Positions 20,418 to 62,337 of a stretch of 64,000 nucleotides of DNA are shown here, piece after piece; the first letter of the stretch is position 1, and every line of letters starts with the position of its first letter. The notes beneath the pieces were generated by a model. The model had not been told where the DNA came from. It ran no database searches and saw nothing but the letters and a program-made list of their open reading frames with translations. A program made the position numbers and the translations under genes. This DNA comes from Bryobacterales bacterium (GTDB lineage: Bacteria > Acidobacteriota > Terriglobia > Bryobacterales > Bryobacteraceae): positions 90,283-154,282 of the forward strand of contig PMUP01000050.1 in the NCBI GenBank assembly GCA_003166865.1, written 5' to 3'.

Positions 20418-20450
20418 TTGATAGCATTGTACGCTGAGAGGAGAAATCCC

Positions 20451-46096: not shown

Positions 46097-46145
46097 ACCG
46101 ATCGACCGGTAGGGAGATCATATAGAAGGCCGATCCGCTTGTCAA
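46097..46145 (-). promoter_or_regulatory. Promoter and TetR-type operator of TonB receptor A
   Basis: Read on the minus strand: TTGACA (46145-46140), a 17-bp spacer, TATGAT (46122-46117), then ACCGGTCGATCGGT (46110-46097) starting at the predicted +1. The 14-bp element recurs at three other promoters in the window. Placement over the start point fits repression by blocking initiation. Confidence 0.85.
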
Positions 46146-46184
46146 GGGGGTAGTGCCGCTCCAAGCCTGCTTTTGCACTAAGTT

Positions 46185-46213
46185 AAAAGGGCCGGCGATT
46201 GCGCGCCAGCCCT
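46185..46213 (-). terminator. Intrinsic terminator of TonB receptor B
   Basis: On the minus strand AGGGCTGGCG and CGCCGGCCCT pair as a ten-base stem (one G-U) around a six-base loop, followed by TTTT. It lies about 27 bp after the receptor B stop and just upstream of the receptor A promoter, insulating the two transcripts. Confidence 0.8.
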
Positions 46214-46239
46214 GGGTTACTGAACGTTACTGAACTACC

Positions 46240-49200
46240 TTAGAATGTGAAGCGCGCGCCGACCTGCACCGCACGCGTTCCACCCTGACCGAAAGTTTGG
46301 CCAATACGCCCAGTGGCCTGACCGAAAGCGTAGGTCTGCGAAGCGCAACTGGTGAAAGCGCCGTTGGTCAGCGTGCACCCGGGTGCGAGCGTGTCCAATG
46401 TAGTGGTTGGATACACCAGATTGGAGACATTGAACGCGTTAAATATCTCGCCGAGGATGTTCAGCTTATATTTTTCTTTGTACGTGAACGTCTTCGTCAA
46501 GCGGAAGTCCTGGCTGAAGATCGGGGAGTTGAACCCATAATTAGGCGGTAGGACCAGTGGGCCGGGATTTGGGGCACCGGCACCTTGGGCGCTCGGCTTA
46601 CCAGCGTAGTTCGCGTTGTAGTTCTGGACTGCTGCAACAAGCTGCGCTTTGCTGCATCCCACCCCAAGGCAGCTATACGGAATTCCAGGAAGCGGCTCGT
46701 AGCTGTAAGACGGTGCAGTACCTGGCAGATCCAGGCCGTTTACCAATGCGACAGCCGGAGCCCGGCTGATGATGGAGGAGTTGACGCTGAACAGAAAGCC
46801 CCATGGCAGTCGGTAGGTCCCCGAGATGTTCAAGTTCTGGTGGGCAAGATCCTGGCCGAAGCCAGATTTGAAATTAAGGTCATCCGGAGCGCCGGCAGCG
46901 TCTCCGTCGGCAAAGAGCGCATCCGTCTTATCCTTTTGATACGCATAAGAGACCAGGAACTGGAGTCGATTGGAAATGCGCTTGTTGAGTTTCACGAGCA
47001 ATCCATCATAGACCTCCCGGCCCTGGCCGTTCCAAAAGGTGATGGCGCCGGTAGAGCAATTTTGTGCCGGGTTGAAGTCGGGCACGGTCGGGCACAAAGG
47101 AATCACCGGAACCGGCGTGGTACTGCCCTGATATCGGGTGAATAGGTTCTGATCGACTTCGCCCATACTGATGTTCTCGCCTTGGCGCCGCGCCCAGTCG
47201 GCCGTCAGGACCATGCCCCAACCCAGATCGCGCTGAACACCAATCGATGTCTGGTAACTTCGGGCCATCGGGTAATGGGTGGGATAAATCTCCACGCCCT
47301 GGTGCTCATACTGGAGCTCGTCGTACGGGAAGGACCCGCTCCTGGGCGGATTTGGCGGGGCCAGCAGGGCGGTTACAGCGGGCAGTTCGGTGTTCACAAG
47401 ATTTTCGAAAAGTCCGACGGTCATGTTGGTCAATTGGTTTATGGGCAGCGCTGCGCCGACGGGAACGGGCTGCCCGGTGCTCAAGTTGAAAATGCCGGGG
47501 TAAATATTAGTGAATGCGCTGGCGGACAGCGTATTCCTGGCGCTACCAGGGGGTCCGAGCGCTGCCGCTTCGCGCAGCTTGTAATATCCAGGCGTGCTAT
47601 CCCAATAGATGCCAGCGCCGCCGCGGATCACCCACTTTTGGCTCTTTCCCGGGCTCCAGGCGAAGCCCAGCGCGGGCTGGAATTCATGGAGATTGTTCAC
47701 GGTCGGCCCGAGATTGTTCGGACCGGTCCCGAGAATAGGCGCCAAAAGCTCCGGCTTGGGGAGGTTCGAATTATAGAAGCCGGTCTGCGCATTCCACGCC
47801 AGGCCGTAGTTGACCGTCAAGTTAGGACGAATCTTCCAAACATCCTGAACGTATGCTCGGTATTGGTTATAGTGTGTGTTCTGGCTATAGTCGTAGGACG
47901 AAGGCAAAGGAACCTGCCCGACGCCGACGCCGCTGAAAATACTAGCGTTAAGATTCCACACGGGAAGGTTGAGAACTTGAGCGTCAGAGGTGAGCGTGGT
48001 GGGAAGGGTTGGGAAGAGAAGACTGACATAGGCTGGCGGAACCACCTCTCTTAGGAAGGTGGGTGAGACGGCGCCGAGGCACATGGGCGTGCAGAATCCC
48101 CACAGGCCGTTCGAATAAGTGGGATTGAGGTCTCCACCAAACTTCAGGCGGTGGTTGCCCTTTTGCCAGCTTAGCGAATCAACCAGCTCAAACCGGCGCG
48201 TGTTCCGTGATTGGGGAGAATTTAGATTTGGGCCGATGGCTTGCTGATTGGTGCCAACGAAAAAAACCACGTTCGGAAGAACGCCGGCTACGCAAGGCTC
48301 CGAGCAGTCCGATGCAACGGCCGGCAGGTTGTGGTTGTTCCAGTAGTTGTACTCAAAGCGTAGATCGTTGACGAGGGTAGGCGTGAGAATCGAAGTGACA
48401 CCGAGGATGCTTTGATCGGACCAATTGACGTTATGCGGCCAGTTGGATGGATCTCCGAAAGTCAAAGCTGGCCCGAAGCCGTCGTTGCCGTCGTGCGAAT
48501 AGCGCGCGAACAGGTTGTTCTTCGAGTTCAGGTGGTAATCCAGGCGCAAAGTGATCTTCTTGGCCTCATAAGGGCTTGGGTAAGTGCCTTGGATTCCCTT
48601 GAAAGCGGGATCGGTGGTGGTGACACTCTGCGCCTGCACCTGGTTAAGGAATTCGTAGTTAAAAAAGAAGAACAGTTTGTCCTTGATGAGGGGCCCGCCG
48701 AGTGACGCGCCCGGATTGCGGCGCACAAAGAACGGGTTTAGATCGCCCGGGAAGCGATCCAGGTTGGGGTAAGCAGCCATGTTATGGTCGCGGTAGAAAA
48801 AGTAAGCGCTGCCATGCCAATCGTTAGAGCCCGAGCGCGTCACCATGTTGATGGAGCCGCCGGTCTGAATGGGACTTGACAGATCGATATTCAATTCCGA
48901 GAGCTGGAATTCCTGGACCACTTCCTGGGTAAAGTTCATGGACTGGCCGCCGCCAGCCACATCGATATTGTCGGAGACGTTGCCGCCATCCACGGTGACC
49001 GCGGTCCGGAATCCGCTGCCCAGAACGCTCACATAGAACAAGGCATTGAATTGGCCGACTGTTCCCGTGGTGATCTGCACGCCGGGTTCGACTGAGGCGA
49101 GTTGTATGTAGTCGCGGCCGTTTGACGGAAGGTCCTCGATGACGGAGTGCTCGATGACGCCTCCGATCTCGTTCTTTTCATAGTTCATCTGGTTCGAGGC

Positions 49201-49563
49201 AGCTTCCACCGTAACCACTTCCGTGTTGCCGCCTAACTCCATGGGCACGTTCACCGTTATGGTGCTGCCCACCAATACCGTGGCATCGCGTTCCGAGATT
49301 CTGAAACCAGTGGCTTCGGCTTTCACTTGGTAGTCGCCGGCTGGAAGCGCGGCGGCGGCGAAATATCCCTCGGCGTTCGCGGTAGCAGTACGGGCGTTGC
49401 CCGTAGCCTTGTTAGTGATGGTTATCGTTACGTTGGGGATGACGGCGCCCGACGCGTCGGCGACCGTTCCCACGATAGTCCCCGTAGCTTGAGAGAATGC
49501 CACCGCGCAAAACAGCAGTGTCATCCCTGTTATCGCTATAAACGCAGCAATAGGTCTCAACAT
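46240..49563 (-). CDS. TonB-dependent receptor, Oar-like (tandem copy B)
   Basis: 1,107 aa. Signal 'IAAFIAITGMTLLFCAVAFSQ', a regulatory domain 'TGTIVGTVADASGAVIPNVTITITN' (split), a plug with 'DLPSNGRDYIQLASVEPGV' and a barrel ending 'VGARFTF'. ATG 49563 with GAGGAGATCTCT upstream is chosen over 49611. Long identical blocks with copy A ('CSTGAITFWNGQGREVYDGLLVKLNKR', split) show tandem duplication. The signal peptide differs from copy A, because copy A's signal-peptide coding sequence survives as a fossil in the leader (49603-49650). Confidence 0.88.
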   Translation of the reverse strand: MLRPIAAFIAITGMTLLFCAVAFSQATGTIVGTVADASGAVIPNVTITITNKATGNARTATANAEGYFAAAALPAGDYQVKAEATGFRISERDATVLVGSTITVNVPMELGGNTEVVTVEAASNQMNYEKNEIGGVIEHSVIEDLPSNGRDYIQLASVEPGVQITTGTVGQFNALFYVSVLGSGFRTAVTVDGGNVSDNIDVAGGGQSMNFTQEVVQEFQLSELNIDLSSPIQTGGSINMVTRSGSNDWHGSAYFFYRDHNMAAYPNLDRFPGDLNPFFVRRNPGASLGGPLIKDKLFFFFNYEFLNQVQAQSVTTTDPAFKGIQGTYPSPYEAKKITLRLDYHLNSKNNLFARYSHDGNDGFGPALTFGDPSNWPHNVNWSDQSILGVTSILTPTLVNDLRFEYNYWNNHNLPAVASDCSEPCVAGVLPNVVFFVGTNQQAIGPNLNSPQSRNTRRFELVDSLSWQKGNHRLKFGGDLNPTYSNGLWGFCTPMCLGAVSPTFLREVVPPAYVSLLFPTLPTTLTSDAQVLNLPVWNLNASIFSGVGVGQVPLPSSYDYSQNTHYNQYRAYVQDVWKIRPNLTVNYGLAWNAQTGFYNSNLPKPELLAPILGTGPNNLGPTVNNLHEFQPALGFAWSPGKSQKWVIRGGAGIYWDSTPGYYKLREAAALGPPGSARNTLSASAFTNIYPGIFNLSTGQPVPVGAALPINQLTNMTVGLFENLVNTELPAVTALLAPPNPPRSGSFPYDELQYEHQGVEIYPTHYPMARSYQTSIGVQRDLGWGMVLTADWARRQGENISMGEVDQNLFTRYQGSTTPVPVIPLCPTVPDFNPAQNCSTGAITFWNGQGREVYDGLLVKLNKRISNRLQFLVSYAYQKDKTDALFADGDAAGAPDDLNFKSGFGQDLAHQNLNISGTYRLPWGFLFSVNSSIISRAPAVALVNGLDLPGTAPSYSYEPLPGIPYSCLGVGCSKAQLVAAVQNYNANYAGKPSAQGAGAPNPGPLVLPPNYGFNSPIFSQDFRLTKTFTYKEKYKLNILGEIFNAFNVSNLVYPTTTLDTLAPGCTLTNGAFTSCASQTYAFGQATGRIGQTFGQGGTRAVQVGARFTF

Positions 49564-49602
49564 AGAGAGATCTCCTCTTTTCGTTTTGGAGGCGAAGCCT
49601 CG

Positions 49603-49697
49603 CTTGGGCATAGGCGGCAGAGCCCATAGCGAGCGCTAAAGCCAGCAACATCACTTTGCCGTTAGTCAGTTCAACAAAAGGTATCGTAAACTTCCCT
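49603..49697 (-). other. Fossil copy of the receptor A 5' end within the receptor B leader
   Basis: Bases 49603-49650 match 45879-45928 (receptor A signal-peptide codons; 'LLALALAMGSAAYAQ' is still readable on the minus strand). The following bases match the receptor A leader ('TTTGCCGTTAGTCAGTT'). Receptor A's Shine-Dalgarno/start segment (about 31 bp) and about 100 bp of its leader are missing here. The promoter and operator then match again. Confidence 0.8.
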
Positions 49698-49698
49698 A

Positions 49699-49747
49699 AC
49701 CGATCGACCGGTAGGGAGATCATATAGAAGGCCGGTGCTCCTGTCAA
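49699..49747 (-). promoter_or_regulatory. Promoter and TetR-type operator of TonB receptor B
   Basis: Minus strand: TTGACA (49747-49742), 17-bp spacer, TATGAT (49724-49719), ACCGGTCGATCGGT (49712-49699) at +1. It is nearly identical to the receptor A promoter over roughly 60 bp. Confidence 0.85.
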
Positions 49748-49785
49748 GGGGGGTAGGGACCCGTGTGTCGTTAGCACGCTAGTTG

Positions 49786-50979
49786 TCACGCGATCACCCC
49801 GGCCTGGCGAAGGCGCTCGATTTCCTGTTGATCCATTCTCAGAAATTCGCTCAGCACCGCGGTCGAATCTTCGCCCAAGCGTCGCGCGGCCGTCGGAACC
49901 CCGGCGTGGCTTTGGGACAACTTCACCGGAGCGCCCGTGACACGGATTCGGCCTGCTGTGGGATGCTCCACTTCCGGCAGCATGTCACGCGCCTGGACGT
50001 GTTCGTCTTCCACCACCTCTCGGAGATTGCGCACCGGGGAGCAAGGAATCCCCGCGCGCCCCAGCACCTCTACCCAGTGCGCGGCGGTCTGGCCGCGAAA
50101 CATTTCTTCCAGCAGCGGCTCGAGCTCGCCGCGATGCTCCACGCGGAGACGATTCGACCGGTAGCGCTGGTCGTCAAGAAGGTCGGGCCGGGAGATGGCG
50201 TGACAGAAGCTCTCCCACAACTTGTCGCTCGCCACCGCGATGGTGACTTCACGGTCCGAGCACGTGAAATTGCGATACGGAACTATGGTGGCAAACCTGG
50301 TGCCCATGGGCGCCGGGATGATTCCGGAGCCAAGGTAATACGCAAAGCTGGGCGCCATGGTGGACATCAGCGTGTCGAGCATGGACACATCCACAAACTG
50401 GCCTTCGCCGGTCCGGTGGCGCGCCTCGAGCGCGAGCATCGCTCCAATCAGCGCGAACATCCCCGCAGTGACATCGGCAACCGAGTGGCCGGAGCGCACC
50501 GTTTCGCCAGCCAGCGTACCGGTGATGCTCATCAGGCCCGCGGACGCCTGAGTCACCAGATCCATGGAGGCCTCGTTGCTGCGAGGCCCGGTTTGGCCGT
50601 AGCCGGAGATCGATACATAGATGAGCCGCCGGTTCAGCGGGGCCACGCTCGCGTAACCAAGTCCGAGCCGGTTCATCGTACCCGGACGGAAGTTTTCAAT
50701 CAGAATATCGGCGTGCGCGGCCAGCCGGCGGCAGATGTCCAAACCTTCCGGCTGCTTCAAGTCAACCGCCAGGCTTTGTTTGCTGCTGTGAAGCCCGAGG
50801 AAGTACGACGCTTCTCCTCCCTGAAACGGAGGCCCCCAGGAGCGGCCCACGTCGCCCTGGCCTGGACTCTCGATCTTGATCACGCGCGCGCCGTAGGCTG
50901 CCAGCAGCATCGTGCAGTAGGGACCTGCCAGCGCGTGAGAAAAATCGAGGACCGTGAGTCCCTCAAGAGGTGGATGCAT
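49786..50979 (-). CDS. CaiB/BaiF family III CoA-transferase
   Basis: 397 aa, standard length. It begins 'PPLEGLTVLDFSHALAGPYCTMLLAAYGARVIKIE' (split), then shows 'NFRPGTMNRLGLGYASV' and 'RRLIYVSISGYGQTGP', with a likely catalytic Asp in 'ASMDLVTQASAGLMSITG'. These cytoplasmic enzymes move CoA between carboxylic acids, often activating a catabolic substrate. It is divergent from the ThDP enzyme at 51052 (72-bp gap), suggesting joint use in one pathway. No TetR-type element lies in this gap. Confidence 0.92.
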   Translation of the reverse strand: MHPPLEGLTVLDFSHALAGPYCTMLLAAYGARVIKIESPGQGDVGRSWGPPFQGGEASYFLGLHSSKQSLAVDLKQPEGLDICRRLAAHADILIENFRPGTMNRLGLGYASVAPLNRRLIYVSISGYGQTGPRSNEASMDLVTQASAGLMSITGTLAGETVRSGHSVADVTAGMFALIGAMLALEARHRTGEGQFVDVSMLDTLMSTMAPSFAYYLGSGIIPAPMGTRFATIVPYRNFTCSDREVTIAVASDKLWESFCHAISRPDLLDDQRYRSNRLRVEHRGELEPLLEEMFRGQTAAHWVEVLGRAGIPCSPVRNLREVVEDEHVQARDMLPEVEHPTAGRIRVTGAPVKLSQSHAGVPTAARRLGEDSTAVLSEFLRMDQQEIERLRQAGVIA

Positions 50980-51051
50980 TCGCTGGATAGGCAGGCAATA
51001 TCATAACAGGCCCTCCCTACCGCGCGACAAGTGTATTATCCTGCCATTTAT

Positions 51052-52599
51052 ATGACTGGCGCGGACTGCCTACTCCAAACCCTGGCCCTCAATCAGATCG
51101 AAGTCTGCTTCATGAACCCCGGCACCTCGGAGATGCACTTCGTCTCCGCTCTGGATCGTGTGACTGCGGTTCGGGGCGTGTTGTGCCTCTACGAGGGCGT
51201 CTGCTCCGGAGCGGCCGACGGTTATGCGCGCATGAAGGGCTTACCGGCTGCGACGCTGCTGCATCTCGGCCCCGGCCTTGGGAACGCCCTTTCGAATTTT
51301 CACAACGCGCGGAAAGCGCGGTCCCCCATCGTGAGCATCATCGGCGAACACACCAGAGGACACCAGAAGTATGACGCGCCTCTCAGTTCCGATATCGCTC
51401 AATTCGGGCGAGCCGTCTCGGACTCCATCCGGACCGTTGAAAGTCCGGAATGTTTGGGGCTGGCTGTTTCGGAAGCGATTGCCGCGGCCATTCAACCGCC
51501 CGGCCGCATTGCGATGTTGATTGTACCGGCCGATATCTCCTGGCTCGAGACCAAGACCATCGGCGCCGTCGTACATAGTCCCCAGCGTCTCATGCCGAGC
51601 TCTGAGAGCATCCTCGACGCGGCTCGCCTGCTGCGCTCTTCCAGTAACGCCGGCATCATTCTCGGAGGAGCGTCGATGAGCCGCCGTGCGCTGGAAGCCG
51701 CTGGCCGGCTGTCCGCCGCTACTGGAGTCCGTGTATTCGCGGATCGCAGCACTCCACGTCTGGCCTCGGGCCGCGGATGCTTCCGGGTGGAGAAGGTTCC
51801 ATATTTCCCCGAAGACGCAAGCGCCGCACTCGGCAGCCTGACCCACTTGATCCTGGTCGAAGCGCCGACGCCGGTCTCTTTCTTCGGCTACCCCAACACG
51901 CCCAGCTCGCCGGTTCCCGAAACCTGCGCCGTCTCCGTTCTCGCAACCCCGGAACAGGATGGCGCCGCCGCGCTGGAAGCTGTGGTGGAAGAATGCGGAG
52001 CGCAAAAGGCCCGGCCGCCAGCAATGGACGACGAACCACTCGCGCTCCCGCTGGATTCGCCGCTCACGGCCGACGCCATCGGACGGACCCTGGCCGTCCT
52101 GCTTCCCGAATGGGCCATCATCTCAGACGAGACGATCTCTTCAAGCGCCGCGATTCTTCCTTACTTGATGCGGGCCGCTTCACACGATCAGTTGCCGCTC
52201 ACAGGAGGCGCCATCGGCCAGGGACTGCCGGTCGCGGTGGGAGCGGCCATCGCCTGTCCAGAGCGCAAAGTGATCGCGCTCGAAGCTGACGGTAGCGCGA
52301 TGTATTCGTTGCAAGCCCTGTGGACCATGGCGCGTGAGAGTCTGGACATCGTGACGGTCATTCTAGCCAACCGCCGCTATCGCATTCTCGACGTCGAAAT
52401 GCGCAGAACCGGCGCGTCGAGAATCGGCGCCAGGGCCAATGACATGCTCGACCTCGGCCGGCCCGACCTGGATTTCGTGAGTCTCGCGCGCGGCATGGGC
52501 GTGCCTGCAACGCGGGCGGCCACCGCGCAGGAATTCACTCGGCAATTCCGCACGGCGGTTTCCGAACGCGGGCCTCGCCTTATCGAGGCCGTGCTCTAA
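51052..52599 (+). CDS. ThDP-dependent enzyme, acetolactate synthase/benzoylformate decarboxylase-like
   Basis: 515 aa. The N-terminal pyrimidine domain has 'FMNPGTSEMHFVSALD' and catalytic Glu in 'LYEGVCSGAADGYARM'. The C-terminal PP domain has 'EADGSAMYSLQALWTMARESLDIVTVILANR' (split), the ThDP motif with GDG reading ADG. The type resembles IlvX-like/MdlC proteins that decarboxylate 2-oxo acids. The start ATG 51052 lies 12 bp after TATTAT (51034-51039). A GTG at 51031 would overlap that box and is rejected. The 3' end is partly duplicated. Confidence 0.88.
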   Translation: MTGADCLLQTLALNQIEVCFMNPGTSEMHFVSALDRVTAVRGVLCLYEGVCSGAADGYARMKGLPAATLLHLGPGLGNALSNFHNARKARSPIVSIIGEHTRGHQKYDAPLSSDIAQFGRAVSDSIRTVESPECLGLAVSEAIAAAIQPPGRIAMLIVPADISWLETKTIGAVVHSPQRLMPSSESILDAARLLRSSSNAGIILGGASMSRRALEAAGRLSAATGVRVFADRSTPRLASGRGCFRVEKVPYFPEDASAALGSLTHLILVEAPTPVSFFGYPNTPSSPVPETCAVSVLATPEQDGAAALEAVVEECGAQKARPPAMDDEPLALPLDSPLTADAIGRTLAVLLPEWAIISDETISSSAAILPYLMRAASHDQLPLTGGAIGQGLPVAVGAAIACPERKVIALEADGSAMYSLQALWTMARESLDIVTVILANRRYRILDVEMRRTGASRIGARANDMLDLGRPDLDFVSLARGMGVPATRAATAQEFTRQFRTAVSERGPRLIEAVL

Positions 52600-52621
52600 G
52601 GATCGAGGCAGTGCTCTAAGG
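52582..52621. repeat. 20-bp tandem duplication at the end of the ThDP gene
   Basis: ATCGAGGCCGTGCTCTAAGG and ATCGAGGCAGTGCTCTAAGG lie back to back. The first copy holds the ThDP enzyme's last codons and stop. The second copy supplies the stop codon (CTA on this strand) of the convergent TetR-TetR gene. Confidence 0.92.
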
Positions 52622-53911
52622 CGCAGCTTTTGGCGACGCCGCGCCAGTCAAATAGATAGTTGCAAACAACACGCCGATCTGATCGGGCGATAAAGGTCCA
52701 TTGGGCCGGAACCAGACTAGTACGCGATTCAGGAGGCCGAGGAGGGCCAGGCACAGGTACTTGACGGGCACGTCCTCGCGCAGCGCGCCCGCAGTCTGCG
52801 CCGCATCCAAAACAGATCGCACCAGGCTTTCATAGGCGTCCCGAAGGGCGGTCACCTCATCCAGCCGTTCTGTGGACAGGGAGAACATTTCCGTCAAAGC
52901 TGCTGAATGCCGGTCTTGATCCCGTAGCATGCTTTGAATGTGGGTGCGTATCAGTATGCCTGTTCGCTCCAGGGGACTTGAAGCGTCCTTGAGAGCGGCT
53001 TCAACGTCACTGCGGATTTGTTTCAGTGTCCACTTACAAAGGTCGTAGAGCAGGTCTTCCTTGGTCTCGATGTGATAATACAGCGACGCCTTCCGAATCC
53101 CGATCTGTGCCGCGATCTCACGAGTGCTGGTCAGAGCGTAGCCCTTCTTGGCGAACAAAGCGGCGGCGGTGTCCAGCAGCCGTGTCGAAATGGGTCCTTG
53201 CGATGCCCTGGAAGGCTTGCGCCGCCGTGCTGCAACCACCCGGGAGCCGCCCTGCTCGAGATCGGGAAGCACGCCAGAGAGCCGTCCCGCGGATGTGGTT
53301 GCACCGTCAATGTAGGTGCGTGCGAAGATCTCAGCGAGCTGATCCGCCGACAGCGCTTCGTCGCCGCGATACCACAGCACGGCCCAATTGAGCATATTGA
53401 GGAGGGCCAGGCAGAGGTATTTTGCCGGAATGTCCTCTCGGACAAAGCCTTCACTCTGCCCATAGTTCAGGATCGCGAGAACCAGCTTCTCGTAGCGCTT
53501 CCGCAGTCCGACCACTTGCCGCCGGTGCGTGCCGGAAAGAGCGCGCAGCTCGGTTAGCATGAGGGCGTGTCTGGTCCGATACTTCAGCAGCGTATTGAGA
53601 TGAGTACTAACCAGGATCCGAATCCGCCCCTCGGCACAATTCGATTCGTTGACGGCGGACTGCACCGCGCTGAGGAGTTGCTCGAGCGATGTCACGCACA
53701 GTTGGTAGAGTAGATTTTCCTTGCTGGCAACATGGTGATAAAGAGACGCCTGCCGAATACCCAAGCTGGCGGCAATCTCACGCGTGGTGGTTGCCGCATA
53801 GCCCTTTTTCCAAAACAACTCGGCGGCCCGGTCGAGCACACGTTCTTGCGTAGAGGCGTCAGCTTGAACAGCGCTGTCGGAAGTTGATAACAAAGCGCGG
53901 CTCAGGCGCAT
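52616..53911 (-). CDS. Single-chain tandem TetR regulator (two complete TetR units)
   Basis: 431 aa made of two homologous TetR-type units at about 21-203 and 241-423, joined by a basic linker. Each unit has the N-terminal helix-turn-helix ('TREIAASLGIRQASLYHHVASKENLL', split; 'TREIAAQIGIRKASLYYHIETKEDLL', split) and a full ligand/dimer domain with the shared block 'YLCLALL'. The recognition helices differ (RQASLYHH against RKASLYYH). TetR proteins normally act as dimers of single units. Here one chain could itself be the dimer and read an asymmetric site. It is the last gene of the operon starting at 60911, which carries the shared 14-bp element, so it probably represses its own operon. Confidence 0.9.
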   Translation of the reverse strand: MRLSRALLSTSDSAVQADASTQERVLDRAAELFWKKGYAATTTREIAASLGIRQASLYHHVASKENLLYQLCVTSLEQLLSAVQSAVNESNCAEGRIRILVSTHLNTLLKYRTRHALMLTELRALSGTHRRQVVGLRKRYEKLVLAILNYGQSEGFVREDIPAKYLCLALLNMLNWAVLWYRGDEALSADQLAEIFARTYIDGATTSAGRLSGVLPDLEQGGSRVVAARRRKPSRASQGPISTRLLDTAAALFAKKGYALTSTREIAAQIGIRKASLYYHIETKEDLLYDLCKWTLKQIRSDVEAALKDASSPLERTGILIRTHIQSMLRDQDRHSAALTEMFSLSTERLDEVTALRDAYESLVRSVLDAAQTAGALREDVPVKYLCLALLGLLNRVLVWFRPNGPLSPDQIGVLFATIYLTGAASPKAAP

Positions 53912-53941
53912 GGCGTGGATGAACCATTATCGCTCACAGAT

Positions 53942-54961
53942 CTAGCGGGGGTTCACGGCAGACGTGGTTGCCTCCGTCTTGAGGAACTTCAGCAATTCCC
54001 GATTGAAGATCTCCGGCACTTCAATATGTGGAACATGGCCCGCGTTGGGGATTAAGACCAGCTCCGCTCCCGGAATTGTGTCGGCGATGTGCTTGGCCCG
54101 CTCCGGAAAGTCTGGGCCATCCTTGTCGCCACCGAGAACCAACGCCTTTGAACGAATTTTCGCCCAGTCGTAGACCACTGGATCCAGGTACAAGATCTGT
54201 TGATAGATGGAGCGGACCATGGCCAGCCTCGGCCAGTCGCCACTCAGCGTCGGCGCGTAGAGAATTCGCACGTAGTGCTCGTATTCGGGCTTCCAGGCGC
54301 CGGGCGTCGGAAAATAGCGCCGGATATTTGCATAAAACGCCTGGTAGATCTGATCGTGAGATTGCGCCATAGTCGCTTTGTACGCATCATCCGCCGAGCG
54401 CCAGGCCGTTTGATAACGGGGGTCCGTCAATCCGATCGGATTATAAATAACCAGGCGTTCGGTCATGTCCGGATAGGAGGCTGCAAACCGCGCGGCCAGC
54501 ATCCCGCCCATCGAATGTCCGACAATCGCCGCCTGCGCGATGCCCAACGACTGAAGAAGCTTGCGGGTGTTCAGCGCCATATCGTTAAAGTTGTACGGAA
54601 TAATCGGCTTGGATGATCTTCCGAAGCCAATCTGGTCCGGTACCACGACGCGAAAGCCTGCGTTACGGAGCAATTCAATCGGCCCGCTAAAGTAGAAGCC
54701 TCCGAAATTCATCCCATGCAGCAGGACCACGGTGCGCCCGTTCGGTTGGTTCGCGGGCGGCACGTCCATGTAAGCCATTCGCACGTCTTGCCCGTACAGC
54801 GTCAGCGGCAAATACGCGACGGGATACGGGTAGGGGACTTCATCGTACGTGATGCTGCCAGGTTGGACGTCTGTGGGAGCATTGGGCGCCTGGGCCCAGA
54901 CCAACATCGCAGTGCACGACGCGACGCAGAACGCGGCGATCATTCTCGTCGCTTTTGTCAT
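53942..54961 (-). CDS. Secreted alpha/beta hydrolase
   Basis: 339 aa with a signal peptide ('MIAAFCVASCTAMLVWAQ'). Motifs: 'TVVLLHGMNFGGFYFSG' (oxyanion), 'GHSMGG' (nucleophile Ser), 'VLGGDKDGPDFPERA' (acid) and 'NAGHVPHIEVPE' (His). It lies 22 bp after the phosphotriesterase-like gene and 30 bp before the TetR-TetR gene, inside the operon. It probably hydrolyses a periplasmic product of the oxidation steps. GGAGGT precedes the ATG. Confidence 0.9.
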   Translation of the reverse strand: MTKATRMIAAFCVASCTAMLVWAQAPNAPTDVQPGSITYDEVPYPYPVAYLPLTLYGQDVRMAYMDVPPANQPNGRTVVLLHGMNFGGFYFSGPIELLRNAGFRVVVPDQIGFGRSSKPIIPYNFNDMALNTRKLLQSLGIAQAAIVGHSMGGMLAARFAASYPDMTERLVIYNPIGLTDPRYQTAWRSADDAYKATMAQSHDQIYQAFYANIRRYFPTPGAWKPEYEHYVRILYAPTLSGDWPRLAMVRSIYQQILYLDPVVYDWAKIRSKALVLGGDKDGPDFPERAKHIADTIPGAELVLIPNAGHVPHIEVPEIFNRELLKFLKTEATTSAVNPR

Positions 54962-54983
54962 ATTCCATCAACCTCCGTGTTCA

Positions 54984-56051
54984 TCATACGCGCTTTGGGC
55001 TACGTTTCTGCTTGGGGACAAAGGCCAGGAAGCGGCGCGGGTTGTCCACCAGGATGCGGTGCAGCGTTTCTTCACCGGCGCCGGCTTCGCGCAGCTTCGG
55101 CACAAATACCGTGACGGTTTTGGCGTATCCTGGGCCGCCATTGCGCTTGAGTTGCGCTGCGTTGGAGAAGTCCGAAGCGAAGAGCAGGTTGTCCGCATAT
55201 CCAGCTTCGATGAGCGCCATGACCATGGGGATTTGTCTCGCGTCGCCCGGGCCGCCCTGGCGATCAAAACCCACAAAGGCGCCCCGCTTGCAGATTTCCT
55301 TATGCACGCGCACCTCGGGGTCGATGAGGCCGCCCACATGGCCGATCGCAACGTGGCGCGGGTTCACGCCGAGAGATTCAAACGTGTCGAGCTGTTCGAG
55401 CGCTGCCTTGCCGAAATTCGTATGCGTGAAGATGGGCAGGTTCGTGGCCAGATGCGTCTTGGCGACGGCGCGAAACACTTTGCGCTCGTTGGCGGTGAAT
55501 TCGTCCCAGGTGCCGATTTCTCCGAGCGCGCCATACGGCGAGGCGCCCACCTCGCGGATCAGACTCTGAGCAATTTGATCTTCACTCAGGGTGGCGATCT
55601 CGGGCGGATAGAAAGGCTCGCTGTAATAGCCCGCACCGGAGACGATCGGCATTCCGGAGCGCATCGAGAGGCGTTTCAGAAAATCCAGGCTGCGGCCCAT
55701 ATCGGGATGCCCGCCGTCCACCAGGCACGCCACACCTTCCTTGCTGGCGGCCCGCAGTTCCTCCGTCATGAGATCGAGATCCTGCAGGAAGTATGTCTCG
55801 CCGGGCTGCGGCGCAATCGCAGCAGGTTGGGGCCGCGATGTTAGCAGGGACATGAACTTCGGCAGAAAATCCGGACTCAACGACATGTGCTCGTGAAAGA
55901 GCGTGGCGCCGCCGGACAGCGACTCCGGAGGCACGTCCCCTAAGACAGTGCGGATAATCGGGCCGGTGGTGTTCTGCGCGAGGGCTACTCCCGAGATTCC
56001 CAGAAGACCGATGACTTGGCGCCGCGTGGGGCGCTTAGTTCTGTTTACCAT
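54984..56051 (-). CDS. Phosphotriesterase-like metal-dependent hydrolase with Tat signal
   Basis: 355 aa. The N-terminus 'RPTRRQVIGLLGISGVALAQ' is a Tat-type signal. The amidohydrolase barrel shows 'LFHEHMSL' (first two His), 'GALGEIGT' (Glu where phosphotriesterase has a carboxylated Lys, as in the PHP/PTER branch), 'FTHTNFG' and 'IGHVGG' (His), and 'ASDFSN' (Asp). Likely a periplasmic lactonase or esterase rather than a true phosphotriesterase. ATG 56051 overlaps the end of the cytochrome gene by 17 bases, indicating coupling; a start at 56072 is possible. Confidence 0.88.
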   Translation of the reverse strand: MVNRTKRPTRRQVIGLLGISGVALAQNTTGPIIRTVLGDVPPESLSGGATLFHEHMSLSPDFLPKFMSLLTSRPQPAAIAPQPGETYFLQDLDLMTEELRAASKEGVACLVDGGHPDMGRSLDFLKRLSMRSGMPIVSGAGYYSEPFYPPEIATLSEDQIAQSLIREVGASPYGALGEIGTWDEFTANERKVFRAVAKTHLATNLPIFTHTNFGKAALEQLDTFESLGVNPRHVAIGHVGGLIDPEVRVHKEICKRGAFVGFDRQGGPGDARQIPMVMALIEAGYADNLLFASDFSNAAQLKRNGGPGYAKTVTVFVPKLREAGAGEETLHRILVDNPRRFLAFVPKQKRSPKRV

Positions 56052-56463
56052 CGCCCGTTTTGGTTGCCTCAAACCGGATCTGCTTCAGCACCTCGGTCCG
56101 ATGATCGAGTTCGGTTTTGCCTTCCGGAAATTGATTCATGCTGAGCATGAAAGCCAGGATATCGGCGTCCTGCTCGCGCGTGAGCCGGCCTGGATTGTCC
56201 GCAGGCATCGACACTCGAATCCTGTCGAACAGGTCACCCACCGTCAGACCGTTCCAGTTGGAGAAAAACTCACCACCCGTGAGCGGCGGGGCCGATTCGC
56301 CCCCGTTCAGCGCCGAGCCGTGGCACGACGCGCAATCGGCCGCGTAGCGCGTGGCTCCGCGCTTGGCCTGCTCAGAGGTGTAAACGCCGTCCCACACGGA
56401 GCGTGAGGTTTGCGCGCACACGCACGCCGCGAACAGAACAGCAATCACAGTTCTCAACATCAC
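56035..56463 (-). CDS. Periplasmic c-type cytochrome
   Basis: 142 aa: a signal peptide ('AVLFAACVCAQ'), then one heme site 'CASCH' in 'GATRYAADCASCHGSALNGGE' (split) and an axial Met candidate in 'VSMPADNPGRL' or 'LSMNQFPEGK'. It lies between the PQQ dehydrogenase and the hydrolase in the operon and is the obvious electron acceptor for the quinoprotein, passing electrons to the respiratory chain. It may also serve the heme-bearing monooxygenase upstream. Confidence 0.92.
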   Translation of the reverse strand: MMLRTVIAVLFAACVCAQTSRSVWDGVYTSEQAKRGATRYAADCASCHGSALNGGESAPPLTGGEFFSNWNGLTVGDLFDRIRVSMPADNPGRLTREQDADILAFMLSMNQFPEGKTELDHRTEVLKQIRFEATKTGDGKQN

Positions 56464-56485
56464 ACTCCCGAAGGAACCGGAGCAG

Positions 56486-56526
56486 GCGCGACCAGGGGGT
56501 CGCGCGCTGGCGAGGGCGCCCGCCCT
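56486..56526. repeat. Pair of GC-rich hairpins, REP-like, in the operon
   Basis: Hairpin 1: GCGCGACC/GGTCGCGC around four bases (56486-56505). Hairpin 2: AGGGC/GCCCT around GCCC (56513-56526). They fill most of the 77-bp gap between the quinoprotein and cytochrome genes. No T tract follows, so they look like an extragenic palindrome affecting mRNA ends rather than a terminator. Confidence 0.55.
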
Positions 56527-56540
56527 ACTCCAAACCCAAG

Positions 56541-58646: not shown

Positions 58647-58687
58647 ATGTCCTCTTTTCTCAAAAACGACCGGGTTTTCTCAAAAAA

Positions 58688-59551
58688 CTACTGAGCCGGT
58701 TTGACCGTGACTTTCACCTGCGCGTTCGACCAGCAACACTGAAATCCGCGGCCTCCCTCGCCGGACCAATCGTTGGCTTGCGCGCGCAGCACGTATTCTC
58801 CCGGTTCACTAAACGTGGCGGTGGTGGCCGCCTTGCCCTGGAACGCTGTCGCCGGAGGCGCCGGAAAATCCGCATTCTCCACCACCGGCTTGTCGCTAGC
58901 AAAGATAACAGAACCTGGCCCGCGGAACTTGCTCCACACAATCGAGACTGCGGGGGTCTTCGGGCGCGTCGCGCCTAGAACAACGCTGGCGTCATCAGCT
59001 ACCCACAGCGCCAATGTCACCGGATTTGGAAATACCGTTGCCAGCGACGTGCTTTGACCTCGCGGCCCTTGAACGAAGGGCCCGGCGGCGGCAAATCCAA
59101 CGAAGGGCGGCGTATTCCCGTTTGCGTCGCGGTAGGGCGATAGCTCCCACAGCGGATTCAGAGTGCCGGGAACCGCGGTGGTTACGGCATTGGCCGTTAG
59201 CGTCCAAGTGAGCTGGTTTGATCCGAAATCCTTGGGCACGGTTATTGTGAAGACGCCCCACTGCCTGCGGGTCAGAAAGTGAGTCGGCTGGCCCTGATCG
59301 GGGCCCCCTGGTTCGATCCGGTTGCCGGCGCCGATGGGGATATCCAGCTCTTGCGTCAGATTTCGATTGTAGTATCCGAAGAGCAGGCTGAAACTCCCGT
59401 CCGGGTTATGAAACCAGCCTTCATAAGCGGCCGTTACGCTTTGTCCGGAATCGTGCCGAGGCCCGGTCAGCAATTGCTGCGCAGGCAGCCCCGCATAACC
59501 TGCCGCGATGATGGCCGCTAGACAGGCCAGCACAACCCGATGACAGCGCAT
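58688..59551 (-). CDS. Secreted beta-sandwich protein of unknown function
   Basis: 287 aa with a signal peptide ('VVLACLAAIIAAGYAGLPAQ'). The mature part looks like one or two Ig/PKD-type beta domains: 'GYYNRNLTQELDIPIGAGNRI' (split) near the start and 'ATFSEPGEYVLRAQANDWSGEG' (split) near the end, the latter typical of PKD-like folds. A vicinal Cys pair ('FQCCWSN') near the C-terminus could bind metal or form a disulfide. It lies 13 bp after the copper monooxygenase, which suggests an accessory or binding role. Confidence 0.75.
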   Translation of the reverse strand: MRCHRVVLACLAAIIAAGYAGLPAQQLLTGPRHDSGQSVTAAYEGWFHNPDGSFSLLFGYYNRNLTQELDIPIGAGNRIEPGGPDQGQPTHFLTRRQWGVFTITVPKDFGSNQLTWTLTANAVTTAVPGTLNPLWELSPYRDANGNTPPFVGFAAAGPFVQGPRGQSTSLATVFPNPVTLALWVADDASVVLGATRPKTPAVSIVWSKFRGPGSVIFASDKPVVENADFPAPPATAFQGKAATTATFSEPGEYVLRAQANDWSGEGGRGFQCCWSNAQVKVTVKPAQ

Positions 59552-59564
59552 CTTCTTCTCTTGG

Positions 59565-60911
59565 CTAGTTGCCGTCGGCTGCGGCTGCGGCGGCGGCGGC
59601 GGCTGCGGCTACCGTGGGCGGCGGCGGACCGTGCTTGGATAGCCACTCTTGATAATCCGCTTCGCTGATGTAAGTTACGTTCACCCACGCATGAGCCATC
59701 TCGTCCACGGTGCGGTCGCCCCACCCGACCCATTGGTTCGGATCAGGGTTGTTACGATTGGAGGCAGTGTTGTCATGCCAGGCGACTACATGGATGATGG
59801 TGCCTTTGGGCAGCACCGGCGCTGCGTCGTCGGCGTAAATGTAGTTGGTCATCCAGTTGAAGTTGAAGTGGTCGACAAAGCTGAGCGTTCGCTTGGTCCC
59901 ATCCGGAAGGATCGCCTCCAGCAGCATCGCTTTGCCGCGCAGGTGCATGTGAGGTTGGAAATTCTCCAACCGGGCCGGCGAATGCAATACCGTGTAGCCC
60001 TCGGTCTGGACGATTTGGTTGGGCGGAATATCGAGCTGGCCGAATCCGGCGTTGCCGGGAGTCGCGGGGAACGGCATCAGGAAAGTGCGGTACTTCGGCA
60101 CCTCGTCCTTGGGATAGAGATAGACGGCCAACTCGACATGATCGCGGATTTCCTCGCCCACGGCGTGCAGATGCATCTCCCAAAAAATGCGCCCACCTGG
60201 CACCAACAGCTTGCCTGTGTTCGGGCGATAAATGTCGTAGTTCTTGTTCATGGCCCATTCCATCAACAGACCTTGCATTGCGAGTCCCGAGTTTGATCCG
60301 GGTTCTTCCTGTTCAAGATAAGCGAGAGCGTGATGGGTAATCCTGCGCCCTGCCAAACTGGCCGGCCGCATTTCGACGGCCCGCACCCAGCGAGCCTCGG
60401 TCACCGGAATTGGCGTCAGCGGCCTCCACCAGACGTCCTGGCCCTTGGCCGGCATCGTGTACGGTTCCGATTTGAGGATGAAGTCCGGTTTCCCGAACTG
60501 TTTCTCGAGCTGCCAGCCGTCGTCATTCGGCCATTGCTTGGGAGGCGGCATATCCTTGGGATCGCCCAGCGGCGCGCCGCCGTCAACCCATCGCGCGATG
60601 AGGGCGATCTGGTCGTCGGCCAGCGACATGTCGTTCTGGAAGTGCTGAATGCCGACCGTCTTGTCCAGATGCCAGGGCGGCATATTGCGGGTCACAACCC
60701 GCTCTTTGATCGATTTCGCCCACGGCCGGGTCTCTTCGTAAGTAACCAGCGACATGGGCGCCATGGATCCGTTGCGATGACAATTCTGGCACTTTTCCTG
60801 AAAAATCGGTGCAATGTCTCTGGCGAACGTCGGCGGGTTGCTGTTGGTAAGCTCCGCGCCCACCACACACCCCGAAAAGGCCAAGCAAGCTGCCAGCGCC
60901 AATGTGCGCAT
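59565..60911 (-). CDS. Cytochrome c-fused, PHM-like type II copper monooxygenase
   Basis: 448 aa with a lipoprotein-like signal (Cys15 in 'AFSGC'). Residues 30-110 are a cytochrome c domain (heme site C41-x-x-C44-H45). Residues ~140-420 match the PHM/DBH two-domain copper fold with all ligands present: His193-His194 ('ITHHALAY'), His247 ('EMHLHAVG'), His321/His323 ('PHMHLRG') and Met405 ('TVDEMAH'). PHM uses O2 and an external reductant to hydroxylate a C-H bond; here the heme may deliver electrons. The C-terminus is a poly-Ala run. ATG 60911 follows GGAGGGTGG. It is the first gene of the seven-gene operon. Confidence 0.85.
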   Translation of the reverse strand: MRTLALAACLAFSGCVVGAELTNSNPPTFARDIAPIFQEKCQNCHRNGSMAPMSLVTYEETRPWAKSIKERVVTRNMPPWHLDKTVGIQHFQNDMSLADDQIALIARWVDGGAPLGDPKDMPPPKQWPNDDGWQLEKQFGKPDFILKSEPYTMPAKGQDVWWRPLTPIPVTEARWVRAVEMRPASLAGRRITHHALAYLEQEEPGSNSGLAMQGLLMEWAMNKNYDIYRPNTGKLLVPGGRIFWEMHLHAVGEEIRDHVELAVYLYPKDEVPKYRTFLMPFPATPGNAGFGQLDIPPNQIVQTEGYTVLHSPARLENFQPHMHLRGKAMLLEAILPDGTKRTLSFVDHFNFNWMTNYIYADDAAPVLPKGTIIHVVAWHDNTASNRNNPDPNQWVGWGDRTVDEMAHAWVNVTYISEADYQEWLSKHGPPPPTVAAAAAAAAAAADGN

Positions 60912-60939
60912 GCCACCCTCCATGATCATCTGATTCCAA

Positions 60940-60986
60940 ACCTGTCGATCGGTAGAATTATATCGCACCAACGACATCGCAGTCAA
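60940..60986 (-). promoter_or_regulatory. Promoter and TetR-type operator of the monooxygenase operon
   Basis: Minus strand: TTGACT (60986-60981), 18-bp spacer, TATAAT (60962-60957), then ACCGATCGACAGGT (60953-60940) covering the predicted start at about 60950. Relative to transcription the element is in the opposite orientation to the TonB sites. Confidence 0.85.
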
Positions 60987-60998
60987 AGCCCCGGCGCC

Positions 60999-62237
60999 CT
61001 ACTTAGCTTTCGGCCAGACCACGCCTTGGTCCTTCTTCGTGACCGCGGCCAAGCCTTTGTACACGAACTTCTGCACGCGCTGGCCGCGATAAGTCTCCGT
61101 GGTATAAATGTTGCCCTTCGAATCGGAGGCAATGCTGTGCACGGCGTAAAACTGGCCAGGCTGCCGGCCGCCGTCCCCAAAGCTGGTCAGAATCTCGAGC
61201 GTGTCACGCAGCATCACGTAGATTTTTTCGTTCGCGCCGTCCGCCAGAAACATGTACTTCTGCTGCGGATCTTTGGAGAAAACGATGTCCCAAACCGAGC
61301 CATCGCCGCGCGTATTTTTCGCGATGACTACTTCCTTGACGAATGTGCCATCCGGTTTGAACACCTGGATGCGGTCGTTCGGCCGATCGCAGACATACAA
61401 CAGGCCGTCGTTGGAGAGCTCGGCGCAGTGCACCGGATTTCGGAACTGTTGCGCGGGAGGATCGTCGGGCTTGTACGGCCCGAGGTTGGTGTCGTCGGGC
61501 TTGTTCCCATAGGCGCCCCAGTGCCGCTTGTACTTGCCAGTCTCCGCGTCGAATACGATCACGCGGTGATTGCCATAGCCGTCGGCGACGTACAACTCAT
61601 CGGTCTTGCGGTCGATAAACAATTTCGCTGGCCCCTTCAGGTTCTCGACGTCGTTGCTGCCCTTGCTCTTGCCGGCGTGGCCGATCTGCATCAGGAACTT
61701 CCCGCTCTGCGTGAACTTGAGGACCATGTTGTCGTTGTAAGGGGCTGGGCCACGAGGGGCGCCCTCGGCCGGAGCTGCACCGGGAGGCGTTGCGCCGCGA
61801 CCGTTGCCTCCGATCCAAACATTCCCTTTGTAATCGACCGTGATGCCATGATTCGAGTCGGGCCACTCGTAGCCTGGGCCAGGGCCGCCCCAGCTCTCGA
61901 CTAGATTGCCAGCCTGATCGAACGCCAACACCGGCGGCGCCGGAGTGCAGCATTCCGCCGCGGGTGGATTCGCGGTCGAGTAGACTTCTTTGGCTTCGAG
62001 TGAACCTGCCCGGTGGATGATCCAGACATGGTCCTGCGCATCGACGGAAACGCCGATCGTATTGCCGATCACCCAATGGTTGGGTAGCGGCTTGGGCCAC
62101 ATCGGATCCACTTCAAACCTCGGCGCCTGAACCGTTGAGGCCTGGACCGAAGCTCGTTTGCTGAGCACAACAGAACTGATTCCGAGGATCACGAGGGTGG
62201 CGCAAAAGGCCGCGCCAACGCGGAAATTGATCTTCAT
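60999..62237 (-). CDS. PAL-like NHL beta-propeller (peptidyl-alpha-hydroxyglycine lyase homologue)
   Basis: 412 aa with an N-terminal signal/anchor (residues 8-26) and about six NHL blades. The sequence retains counterparts of rat PAL active-site residues as I recall them: Arg76 (R533, 'VWIIHR'), His130 (H585, 'NHGITVD'), Tyr221 (Y654, 'ADGYGNHR'), His270 (H690, 'PVHCAEL'), Arg285 (R706, 'VCDRPNDRIQVF') and His367 (H786). PAL cleaves alpha-hydroxyglycine N-C bonds using zinc. Met784 is not kept. A Gly/Pro/Ala insert lies at 148-168. ATG 62237 is eight bases after AAGGAGG. It has its own promoter with the shared operator. Confidence 0.8.
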   Translation of the reverse strand: MKINFRVGAAFCATLVILGISSVVLSKRASVQASTVQAPRFEVDPMWPKPLPNHWVIGNTIGVSVDAQDHVWIIHRAGSLEAKEVYSTANPPAAECCTPAPPVLAFDQAGNLVESWGGPGPGYEWPDSNHGITVDYKGNVWIGGNGRGATPPGAAPAEGAPRGPAPYNDNMVLKFTQSGKFLMQIGHAGKSKGSNDVENLKGPAKLFIDRKTDELYVADGYGNHRVIVFDAETGKYKRHWGAYGNKPDDTNLGPYKPDDPPAQQFRNPVHCAELSNDGLLYVCDRPNDRIQVFKPDGTFVKEVVIAKNTRGDGSVWDIVFSKDPQQKYMFLADGANEKIYVMLRDTLEILTSFGDGGRQPGQFYAVHSIASDSKGNIYTTETYRGQRVQKFVYKGLAAVTKKDQGVVWPKAK

Positions 62238-62288
62238 GGACATAGCCTCCTTCGCGAGCAAATTTTCTTACGGCCATTCGCTCACGAA

Positions 62289-62337
62289 ACCTGTCGATCG
62301 GTTGATATTCTATTACACGCGTCGGGACGTTTGTCAA
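62289..62337 (-). promoter_or_regulatory. Promoter and TetR-type operator of the PAL-like gene
   Basis: Minus strand: TTGACA (62337-62332), then TAGAAT (62312-62307, 19-bp spacer) or TAATAG (62315-62310, 16-bp spacer), then ACCGATCGACAGGT (62302-62289) around the start point. The 14 bp are identical to the monooxygenase-operon site. Confidence 0.82.

What the first reader, a model, noticed from the sequence alone, without database searches (positions are those of the whole stretch)
46097..62302. One 14-bp element at the start point of four strong promoters defines a regulon
ACC[G/T]GTCGATCGGT, in one orientation or the other, occurs at 46097, 49699, 60940 and 62289. Each copy lies immediately downstream of a good -10 box (TATGAT, TATGAT, TATAAT, TAGAAT) with a TTGAC[A/T] -35 box at 16-19 bp. 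It therefore covers +1 of two TonB receptors, the copper-monooxygenase operon and the PAL-like gene. The tandem TetR gene ends that operon, so autoregulation is expected. Uptake, oxidation and hydrolysis genes would then be induced together.
Basis: partly seen in the sequence, partly recalled or inferred. Interest (0 to 1): 0.85.

Follow-up and report, generated by a model that had tools for sequence, protein, structure and literature searches.

The report
Fused double-TetR regulon with shared operator
In an unnamed bacterium, one 14-letter DNA tag sits at the start of several gene sets that look made for taking up and breaking down some compound, and very probably it is the landing site of an unusual repressor made of two fused copies of a common repressor, which would switch these genes on together.

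Summary
ACC[G/T]GTCGATCGGT occurs exactly at 46097, 49699, 60940 and 62289, starting 3-6 nt after TATGAT/TATGAT/TATAAT/TAGAAT, with TTGAC[A/T] at spacers 17/17/18/19. The 6.67-Mb genome holds one more exact copy (C87:11387); the reversed pattern has none. A one-mismatch copy (C87:17306) lies directly before a second double-TetR gene (53% identical). In the family, 9 of 10 other double-TetR loci carry the element with at most one mismatch (13 sites, about 0.4 expected), mostly before the same kinds of gene: TonB receptor, haem-c protein, NHL/PAL-like protein, TetR. A matrix trained only on other genomes ranks the four window sites first to fourth. In 21 relatives without a detected double TetR, none of 21 exact matches lies before such a gene. 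The regulon reading is strongly supported in silico; no binding was measured. The regulator is predicted to be a single-chain TetR pseudo-dimer, closest to Mce3R, but apparently born from one internal duplication. Its halves differ at a fixed recognition-helix residue (Gln vs Lys/Arg), and its operator is lopsided (GTC half + ATC half, 24 of 26 sites). Some relatives are further fused to FCD/GntR. Verdict: real; new variant of a known kind. The 'copper monooxygenase' label is not confirmed.

The parts
46097..46110 (-). operator O1 (ACCGGTCGATCGGT on the minus strand), before TonB receptor gene 1
   Evidence: exact match; matrix from other genomes 22.1, among the top 4 of the window
46117..46145 (-). 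promoter P1: -10 TATGAT (46117-46122), -35 TTGACA (46140-46145), spacer 17
   Evidence: sequence, score 14.8
42631..45948 (-). TonB/Oar-like receptor 1 (longest ORF to 46164; start near 45948 inferred)
   Evidence: CarboxypepD_reg + OMP_b-brl_4
49699..49712 (-). operator O2, before TonB receptor gene 2
   Evidence: exact match; matrix 22.1
49719..49747 (-). promoter P2: -10 TATGAT (49719-49724), -35 TTGACA (49742-49747), spacer 17
   Evidence: sequence, score 14.8
46240..49611 (-). TonB/Oar-like receptor 2
   Evidence: CarboxypepD_reg + OMP_b-brl_4
60940..60953 (-). operator O3 (ACCGATCGACAGGT on the minus strand), before the seven-gene operon
   Evidence: exact match; matrix 22.3
60957..60986 (-). 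promoter P3: -10 TATAAT (60957-60962), -35 TTGACT (60981-60986), spacer 18
   Evidence: sequence, score 15.1
   Evidence: only Cytochrome_CBB3 below cut-off; orthologues L146 (77%) and L145 (78%) also follow the element
58688..59551 (-). operon gene 2: 287-aa protein of unknown family
   Evidence: no Pfam match up to E 0.001; 68% relative in L146
56541..58646 (-). operon gene 3: PQQ-type dehydrogenase
   Evidence: PQQ 5e-181; 83% relative in L146
56035..56463 (-). operon gene 4: cytochrome c
   Evidence: Cytochrome_CBB3 3.1e-10
54984..56072 (-). operon gene 5: phosphotriesterase-family hydrolase
   Evidence: PTE 2e-45
53942..54961 (-). operon gene 6: alpha/beta hydrolase
   Evidence: Abhydrolase_1 1.8e-28
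52616..53911 (-). operon gene 7: double TetR regulator (TetR_N + TetR_C_24, twice; 431 aa)
62289..62302 (-). operator O4, before the NHL/PAL-like gene
   Evidence: exact match; matrix 22.3
62307..62337 (-). promoter P4: -10 TAGAAT (62307-62312), -35 TTGACA (62332-62337), spacer 19
   Evidence: sequence, score 13.2
60999..62261 (-). NHL beta-propeller protein (PAL-like)
   Evidence: NHL 1.7e-15; orthologues L146 (75%) and L144 (74%) follow the element

Best explanation
The 14-bp element is the operator of the double TetR repressor encoded at 52616-53911. One polypeptide folds as a TetR pseudo-dimer. Its N-terminal helix-turn-helix reads one half-site and its C-terminal one the other, so a near-palindrome with unlike halves (ACC[G/T]GTC / ACC[G/T]ATC) is bound by a single chain. 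Bound over the start point, just downstream of the -10 box, it blocks initiation. When a small ligand, probably an acyl-CoA-like or other product of the imported compound, enters the single composite pocket, the protein leaves. Two TonB receptors, the NHL/PAL-like protein and the oxidation/hydrolysis operon, with the repressor as its last gene, then come on together. A paralogous double TetR on contig C87 uses the same operator for itself, a hydrolase and a beta-oxidation-like set. Shown: sites, promoter geometry, genome-wide specificity, co-occurrence with the regulator, and a predicted pseudo-dimer fold. Inferred: binding, repression, half-site assignment, ligand class, coordinate induction.
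For: Genome specificity: 5 exact copies, reversed control 0. A second regulator with adjacent operators. 13 sites with at most 1 mismatch at 9 of 10 double-TetR loci of the family (172 kb), against a Markov mean of 0.4 (maximum 3 in 100 runs), half-shuffled palindromes 0.33, and 5 sites in 1.44 Mb of 80 loci taken as single-TetR controls (10 of those 80 gave ORFs over 300 aa and were not shown to be single). Orthologous placement before NHL/PAL, haem-c, TonB and TetR genes. A matrix from 18 non-G000 sites ranks the four window sites 1-4 (22.1-22.3; next 14.1). 14 of 19 sites have the -10 end 0-6 nt before the element; 15 of 19 exceed the 95th percentile of random positions, 9 of 19 that of AT-rich positions. 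AlphaFold model pLDDT 86.5, pTM 0.79; best fold match Mce3R over the whole chain, Z 30, 373 aligned. Recognition-helix position 54: Gln in 14 of 14 N-terminal domains, Lys/Arg in 14 of 14 C-terminal ones. Operator G-half/A-half in 24 of 26 sites, none A/A.
Against: No binding or expression data. G465 has the double TetR closest to the window's (61%), yet no site in its 12.9-kb locus or in its genome with the symmetric pattern. The more distant G014 and G249 loci have no site with at most 1 mismatch. G468 has two promoter-placed sites, before a PAL-like and a TonB gene, but no double TetR was found in it (660 contigs, 91% complete). Mechanical ORFs overlap 10 of the 19 promoter-placed sites, so 'inside an ORF' alone separates true from chance sites poorly. 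Five of 19 sites lack a good -10 just before the element. Its orientation relative to the promoter is not fixed.
Confidence: 0.85

Rival explanations
1. The element is the operator of another, single-domain regulator (for example an unlinked TetR), and the double TetR genes are simply regulated by it.
For: Other single TetRs bind ACCG...CGGT-type sequences: the QacR IR1 core is ACCGATCGATCGGT (PMC9210681, passages), and the earlier PfmR prediction is TACCGACCGNTNGGTN (PMC7022988, passages). G468 keeps two sites without a detected double TetR.
Against: In 21 genomes of the order without a detected double TetR, none of the 21 exact matches lies before a regulon-type gene. The element accompanies double-TetR genes in different gene neighbourhoods (9 of 10 loci), also next to the longer FCD/GntR-fused ones.
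Confidence: 0.08
2. The two TetR halves act separately: two chains pair N-with-N and C-with-C, giving two homodimer-like binding units, and the element is bound by only one of them.
For: This was the alternative model considered for Mce3R before its structure (PMC11667970, passages).
Against: The predicted single chain matches Mce3R along its whole length. The operator has unlike halves in 24 of 26 sites, and the helices differ at a fixed position.
Confidence: 0.1
3. The element is a duplicated promoter module spread by local gene duplication, not a regulatory operator.
For: 46097 and 49699 are near-identical promoter copies.
Against: The other promoters share the 14 bp but mostly not their flanks or spacers, and the element recurs in other genera before orthologous and non-orthologous genes.
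Confidence: 0.02

Closest known systems
Mce3R, the double TFR of Mycobacterium tuberculosis (PDB 9b7y; PMC11667970, abstract and passages read)
   Same: Two TetR units in one chain fold as one asymmetric TetR-like unit with two unlike HTHs; autoregulated; its regulon includes lipid transport and cholesterol metabolism genes. Best fold match of the window protein, Z 30 over 373 residues.
   Different: Mce3R binds 25-bp asymmetric sequences without a palindrome; here a 14-bp near-palindrome. The paper says the Mce3R halves are homologous to distinct TetR subgroups; here the halves come out as sister groups. 17% identity in the structural alignment.
PfmR/TTHB023 of Thermus thermophilus (PDB 3vpr; PMC7022988, passages read)
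   Same: Closest single-domain structure by sequence (3.7e-29) and fold (Z 18.4); earlier predicted operator with ACCG and GGT arms; sites at fatty acid genes.
   Different: Single-domain protein expected to bind as a homodimer; spacing and centre of the operator differ.
QacR-qacA IR1 (PMC9210681, passages read)
   Same: Operator core ACCGATCGATCGGT is a fully symmetric form of this element, and the repressor covers the start region (-6 to +21 as cited there).
   Different: Pair of homodimers on 28 bp. I did not test any relation of the proteins.
KstR2, AibR, FadR (TetRs; AibR and FadR solved with CoA thioesters per entry titles)
   Same: Same TetR domain type by fold (Z about 15-17).
   Different: Single-domain; their operators were not compared here.

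Membership tests
TetR family (TetR_N DNA-binding domain plus all-helical C-terminal domain) | TetR_N and a TetR C-terminal domain above Pfam cut-off | tested here: met
   two stretches of each, TetR_N 98.7 bits, TetR_C_24 167 bits
TetR family operator | inverted-repeat operator overlapping or just downstream of the -10 box | tested here: met
   14 of 19 sites just after a -10 box; half-sites; that the protein binds it is not shown
Double TFR (Mce3R kind) | two full TetR units in one chain | tested here: met
   window and C87 proteins, and relatives
Double TFR (Mce3R kind) | the two halves assemble within one chain into one TetR-like unit | tested here: met
   prediction only: pTM 0.79, whole-length match to 9b7y, Z 30
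Double TFR (Mce3R kind) | asymmetric operator read by two unlike HTHs | tested here: inconclusive
   unlike half-sites in 24 of 26 sites; P 0.034 on unique 14-mers; no binding data
Mce3R orthologue | 25-bp non-palindromic operator; halves from distinct TetR subgroups | tested here: not met
   14-bp near-palindrome before TonB/PQQ/haem-c genes; halves are sister groups within a clade of support 100/99
   no such family up to E 5 in the window protein or two orthologues; HMMER filters drop most weak matches, so a remote relation stays open
Repressor with ligand-released operator | ligand-dependent derepression | not testable with these tools
   -

The most novel reading that the evidence does not exclude
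A clade of duplication-born single-chain TetR repressors has divided labour between its two DNA-reading heads: the Gln-type head and the Lys/Arg-type head each own one half of a lopsided 14-bp operator. This fused-dimer code is reused by paralogues in one cell, and in some genomes it is extended by an N-terminal GntR-FCD sensor into a three-regulator chain that integrates two ligand signals at one promoter.
Probability: 0.45. Interest if true: 0.65.

Novelty: new variant of a known kind. Interest (0 to 1): 0.52.

Why it matters
The 2024 Mce3R paper calls its structure the first of a double TetR repressor (PMC11667970, passages). The present family is a second lineage, with a short, well-defined operator conserved over several genera, ready for direct tests of how fusing a homodimer lets a repressor read unlike half-sites. 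It also gives a testable regulon (uptake, oxidation, hydrolysis) for an enzyme set whose substrate is unknown, and shows an unusual FCD/GntR-TetR-TetR chain.

Tried and rejected
Five other one-mismatch genomic places (C2, C9, C34, C45, C57) were considered as further regulon members and rejected: the reversed control pattern gives 8 places of its own, against 11 for the pattern including the six accepted ones, and each of the five lies within a mechanical ORF. A possible weak site in the divergent CoA-transferase/TPP-enzyme gap (51019) scored 6.8 and was rejected. The loci from genome contigs gave no exact element and 5 one-mismatch sites in 1.44 Mb, so they served only as control and for the tree. 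Of the 80, 10 gave ORFs over 300 aa and were left out of the tree.

Paper searches for a described natural tandem TetR: one search found 0 papers; ('tandem TetR') held 100, of which I saw the 20 listed, off topic by title; two searches listed 13 and 8, engineered or off topic by title and abstract start; one search listed only the Mce3R paper; (GntR, TetR, fusion, Acidobacteria, Solibacter) listed 0. Mce3R itself came from the PDB search and (20 of 47 listed). A search for six exact 14-mers found one paper, which quotes the QacR operator. These searches cover only the held open library, so absence elsewhere is not claimed.

In the tree, one row (G475b_D1) was cut from the wrong half (the C-terminal domain), which is why the group test shows 2 changes rather than 1. 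I re-cut it for the residue count but did not rebuild the tree. The tree tool also warns of long branches, and closer single TetRs of the same phylum were hardly sampled, so 'one internal duplication' is the simplest reading, not proven.

Corrections of my own notes: one search takes the control as 4 places, but it is 8. says that six comparison sites were 'all inside genes'; one search shows 5 of 6 inside mechanical ORFs and L158 in a gap. One search also says '13ish' sites with a -10 just before the element; the count is 14 of 19.
Full report
OBSERVATION. All four copies of ACC[G/T]GTCGATCGGT are present, exactly, at 46097, 49699 (pattern on the minus strand), 60940 and 62289 (pattern on the plus strand). 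All four promoters point along the minus strand. Reading that strand and scoring it gives TTGACA-17-TATGAT, TTGACA-17-TATGAT, TTGACT-18-TATAAT and TTGACA-19-TAGAAT, with 6, 6, 3 and 4 nt between the -10 box and the element. The element therefore covers the expected start point. 46097 and 49699 are near copies of one promoter (36 of 42 bases alike on the promoter side), so the window gives three independent cases.

GENOME-WIDE TEST. The window lies in an unnamed 6.67-Mb genome of 107 contigs. It has 5 exact matches: the four above and C87:11387; the reversed pattern has none. In 256 other genomes of the order there are 25 exact matches in 24 genomes, never more than two in one genome. I inspected all 25 by mechanical ORF calling and comparison with regulon-type genes. 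Four lie before such genes: L126 (PAL-like) and L140 (TonB), both in G468; L129 (TonB) in G475; L130 (haem-c) in G481. In L126 and L140 a mechanical ORF overlaps the site. The other 21 are in 21 genomes without a double TetR at E 1e-40. All 21 lie inside mechanical ORFs (L127 only 18 nt after an ORF start), and none is placed as a promoter of a regulon-type gene; L120 lies inside a TonB-like ORF, and L134 and L135 hold a distant SDR relative (29-33%) elsewhere in the locus. Since mechanical ORFs also overlap 10 of 19 promoter-placed sites, I lean on the gene placement, not on the ORF count.

THE REGULATOR. 52616-53911 encodes 431 aa with TetR_N and TetR_C_24 twice. It is the last gene of a closely spaced run of seven minus-strand genes from about 60911 down: haem-c protein, a 287-aa unknown, PQQ dehydrogenase, cytochrome c, phosphotriesterase-family hydrolase, alpha/beta hydrolase, double TetR. 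The genome has one clear paralogue, at C87:17348-18625, 53% identical over the chain. A one-mismatch element (C87:17306) lies in the gap between that gene and a divergent hydrolase gene. C87:11387 lies between a divergent acyl-CoA dehydrogenase-like gene and an SDR-like gene (these names, and that of the hydrolase, are my reading of the sequences, not a family search result). Six places in this genome thus pair with two double TetRs.

RELATIVES. Double TetRs with E at most 1e-40 were found in 7 of 257 genomes of the order, G000 included, and with E at most 1e-60 in 3 of 297 genomes of the phylum sample, G000 included. I fetched 10 loci of the family outside G000 and two more distant ones. With the symmetric pattern ACCKRTCGAYMGGT, chosen before these loci were read, 13 sites with at most one mismatch occur in 9 of the 10 family loci (172 kb). 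A first-order Markov null gives a mean of 0.4 and a maximum of 3 in 100 runs; 60 half-shuffled palindromes average 0.33; 80 control loci from the TetR search (1.44 Mb) hold 5, though 10 of the 80 gave long ORFs. L141 (G465) and both distant loci (L024, L025) have none. At two mismatches the loci no longer stand out so sharply (22 against a null mean of 6.7). Placement is orthologous for several genes: before the NHL/PAL-like gene in the window, L146 (75%) and L144 (74%); before the haem-c gene in the window, L146 (77%), L145 (78%) and L130; between hydrolase and double TetR at C87 and L144; before TonB receptors in the window, L143, L129 and L147-L150; between an ankyrin-repeat gene and a DUF1592-type cytochrome gene in L145, L153, L162 and L155. 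For the L142 site I could not name the gene. L146 carries the first four genes of the window's operon in the same order (haem-c 77%, 287-aa protein 68%, PQQ dehydrogenase 83%, cytochrome 69%).

SECOND SCAN. With ACCDRTCGAYHGGT in 15 chosen genomes, the 7 with a double TetR hold 17 places. By my reading 16 are before genes of these kinds and one (L160) is inside an ORF; in 9 of the 16 a mechanical ORF overlaps the site. One of the seven, G465, has none. The 8 comparison genomes hold 6 places, 5 inside mechanical ORFs and 1 in a gap (L158), none placed before a regulon-type gene (L159 is inside a TonB-like ORF). The reversed control gave one place, in G494.

CROSS-VALIDATION. A matrix built only from 18 sites outside G000 ranks the four window sites first to fourth (22.1-22.3; next 14.1) and the two C87 sites first and second on that contig (22.1, 18.1). 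The null maximum per 64 kb averaged 12.3 in 30 runs, with a largest value of 19.2.

PROMOTER GEOMETRY. Over 19 sites (4 window, 2 C87, 13 relatives), the best -10 box ends 0-6 nt before the element in 14. Fifteen exceed the 95th percentile of random positions, and 9 exceed that of AT-rich positions. The exceptions: in L145:4376 the element lies between -35 and -10, and L143, L144:15491, L147:11711 and L150 have no good box in the place tested.

FOLD AND ORIGIN. The predicted chain (pLDDT 86.5, pTM 0.79; alignment of 32 rows, in which the relatives appear to align to the N-terminal half, judged from the conserved columns) matches Mce3R, PDB 9b7y, over its whole length (Foldseek E 1.3e-10; VIA-align Z 30.0, rmsd 4.5, 373 aligned), far above the single-domain matches (Z 18.4 and below). 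In a tree of 98 rows all 28 domain rows form one group (100/99), split into an N-terminal (94/95) and a C-terminal (92/93) group, save one mis-cut row. Most simply the chain arose by one internal duplication. The Mce3R paper says that the Mce3R halves are homologous to different TetR subgroups (PMC11667970, passages read). At recognition-helix position 54, all 14 N-terminal domains have Gln and all 14 C-terminal ones Lys (11) or Arg (3).

LOPSIDED OPERATOR. Each operator was split into half-sites, and the fifth base compared. 24 of 26 promoter-placed sites pair a G-half with an A-half, 2 are G/G, none A/A. Random pairing expects 13.2 mixed; on the 12 distinct 14-mers it is 10 mixed against 6.1, P 0.034. 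Two of the 26 (L126, L140) came only from the asymmetric pattern, and six are from G000. Of the 18 others, which the symmetric patterns return, 16 are mixed. This fits two unlike reading heads, but shared descent of promoters weakens the count.

EXTENDED VARIANT. Four relatives (L147-L150, 666-683 aa) carry an N-terminal FCD domain, 4 of 4; the GntR wing is found at E below 1e-6 in 3 of 4. Operators lie in the gap to a TonB receptor gene.

MECHANISM AND VERDICT. Best reading: a single-chain TetR repressor covering +1, released by a ligand, controlling uptake and oxidation genes and itself. The ligand class (acyl-CoA-like) is only inferred, from fold neighbours such as KstR2, AibR and FadR and from the look of the C87 genes. 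I did not identify the organism; its Oar-like TonB receptors recall Acidobacteriota (recalled, untested).

Noticed in passing
L147:9597-11648, L148:728-2752, L149:8371-10395, L150:9250-11250: FCD-TetR-TetR chains of 666-683 aa, with a GntR wing detected in three of four (three fused regulators), beside a TonB receptor gene, with operators in the gap.
   Followed up: partly
L145:4376, L153:1501, L162:1501, L155:1501: A gene for an ankyrin-repeat protein and a divergent DUF1592/DUF1588-type cytochrome gene share one operator; in L145 it sits between the -35 and -10 boxes.
   Followed up: partly
window 24880-28032 and 32773-35934: Two ORFs of about 1050 aa, each preceded by ORFs of about 390 and 440-460 aa; by size they look like two parallel RND-type efflux operons.
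   Followed up: no
window 20450-20520: Cluster of short ACCGG/CCGGT inverted repeats (ACCGGTCAGCCGGT at 20491), unlike the operator and not explained.
   Followed up: no
L129:1501-1560: Directly after the exact operator lies a second imperfect copy (CCGATTGACCGGTC), so this TonB promoter may have a double operator.
   Followed up: no
G468 (L126, L140): Two promoter-placed operators in a fragmented genome (660 contigs) in which no double TetR was found.
   Followed up: partly
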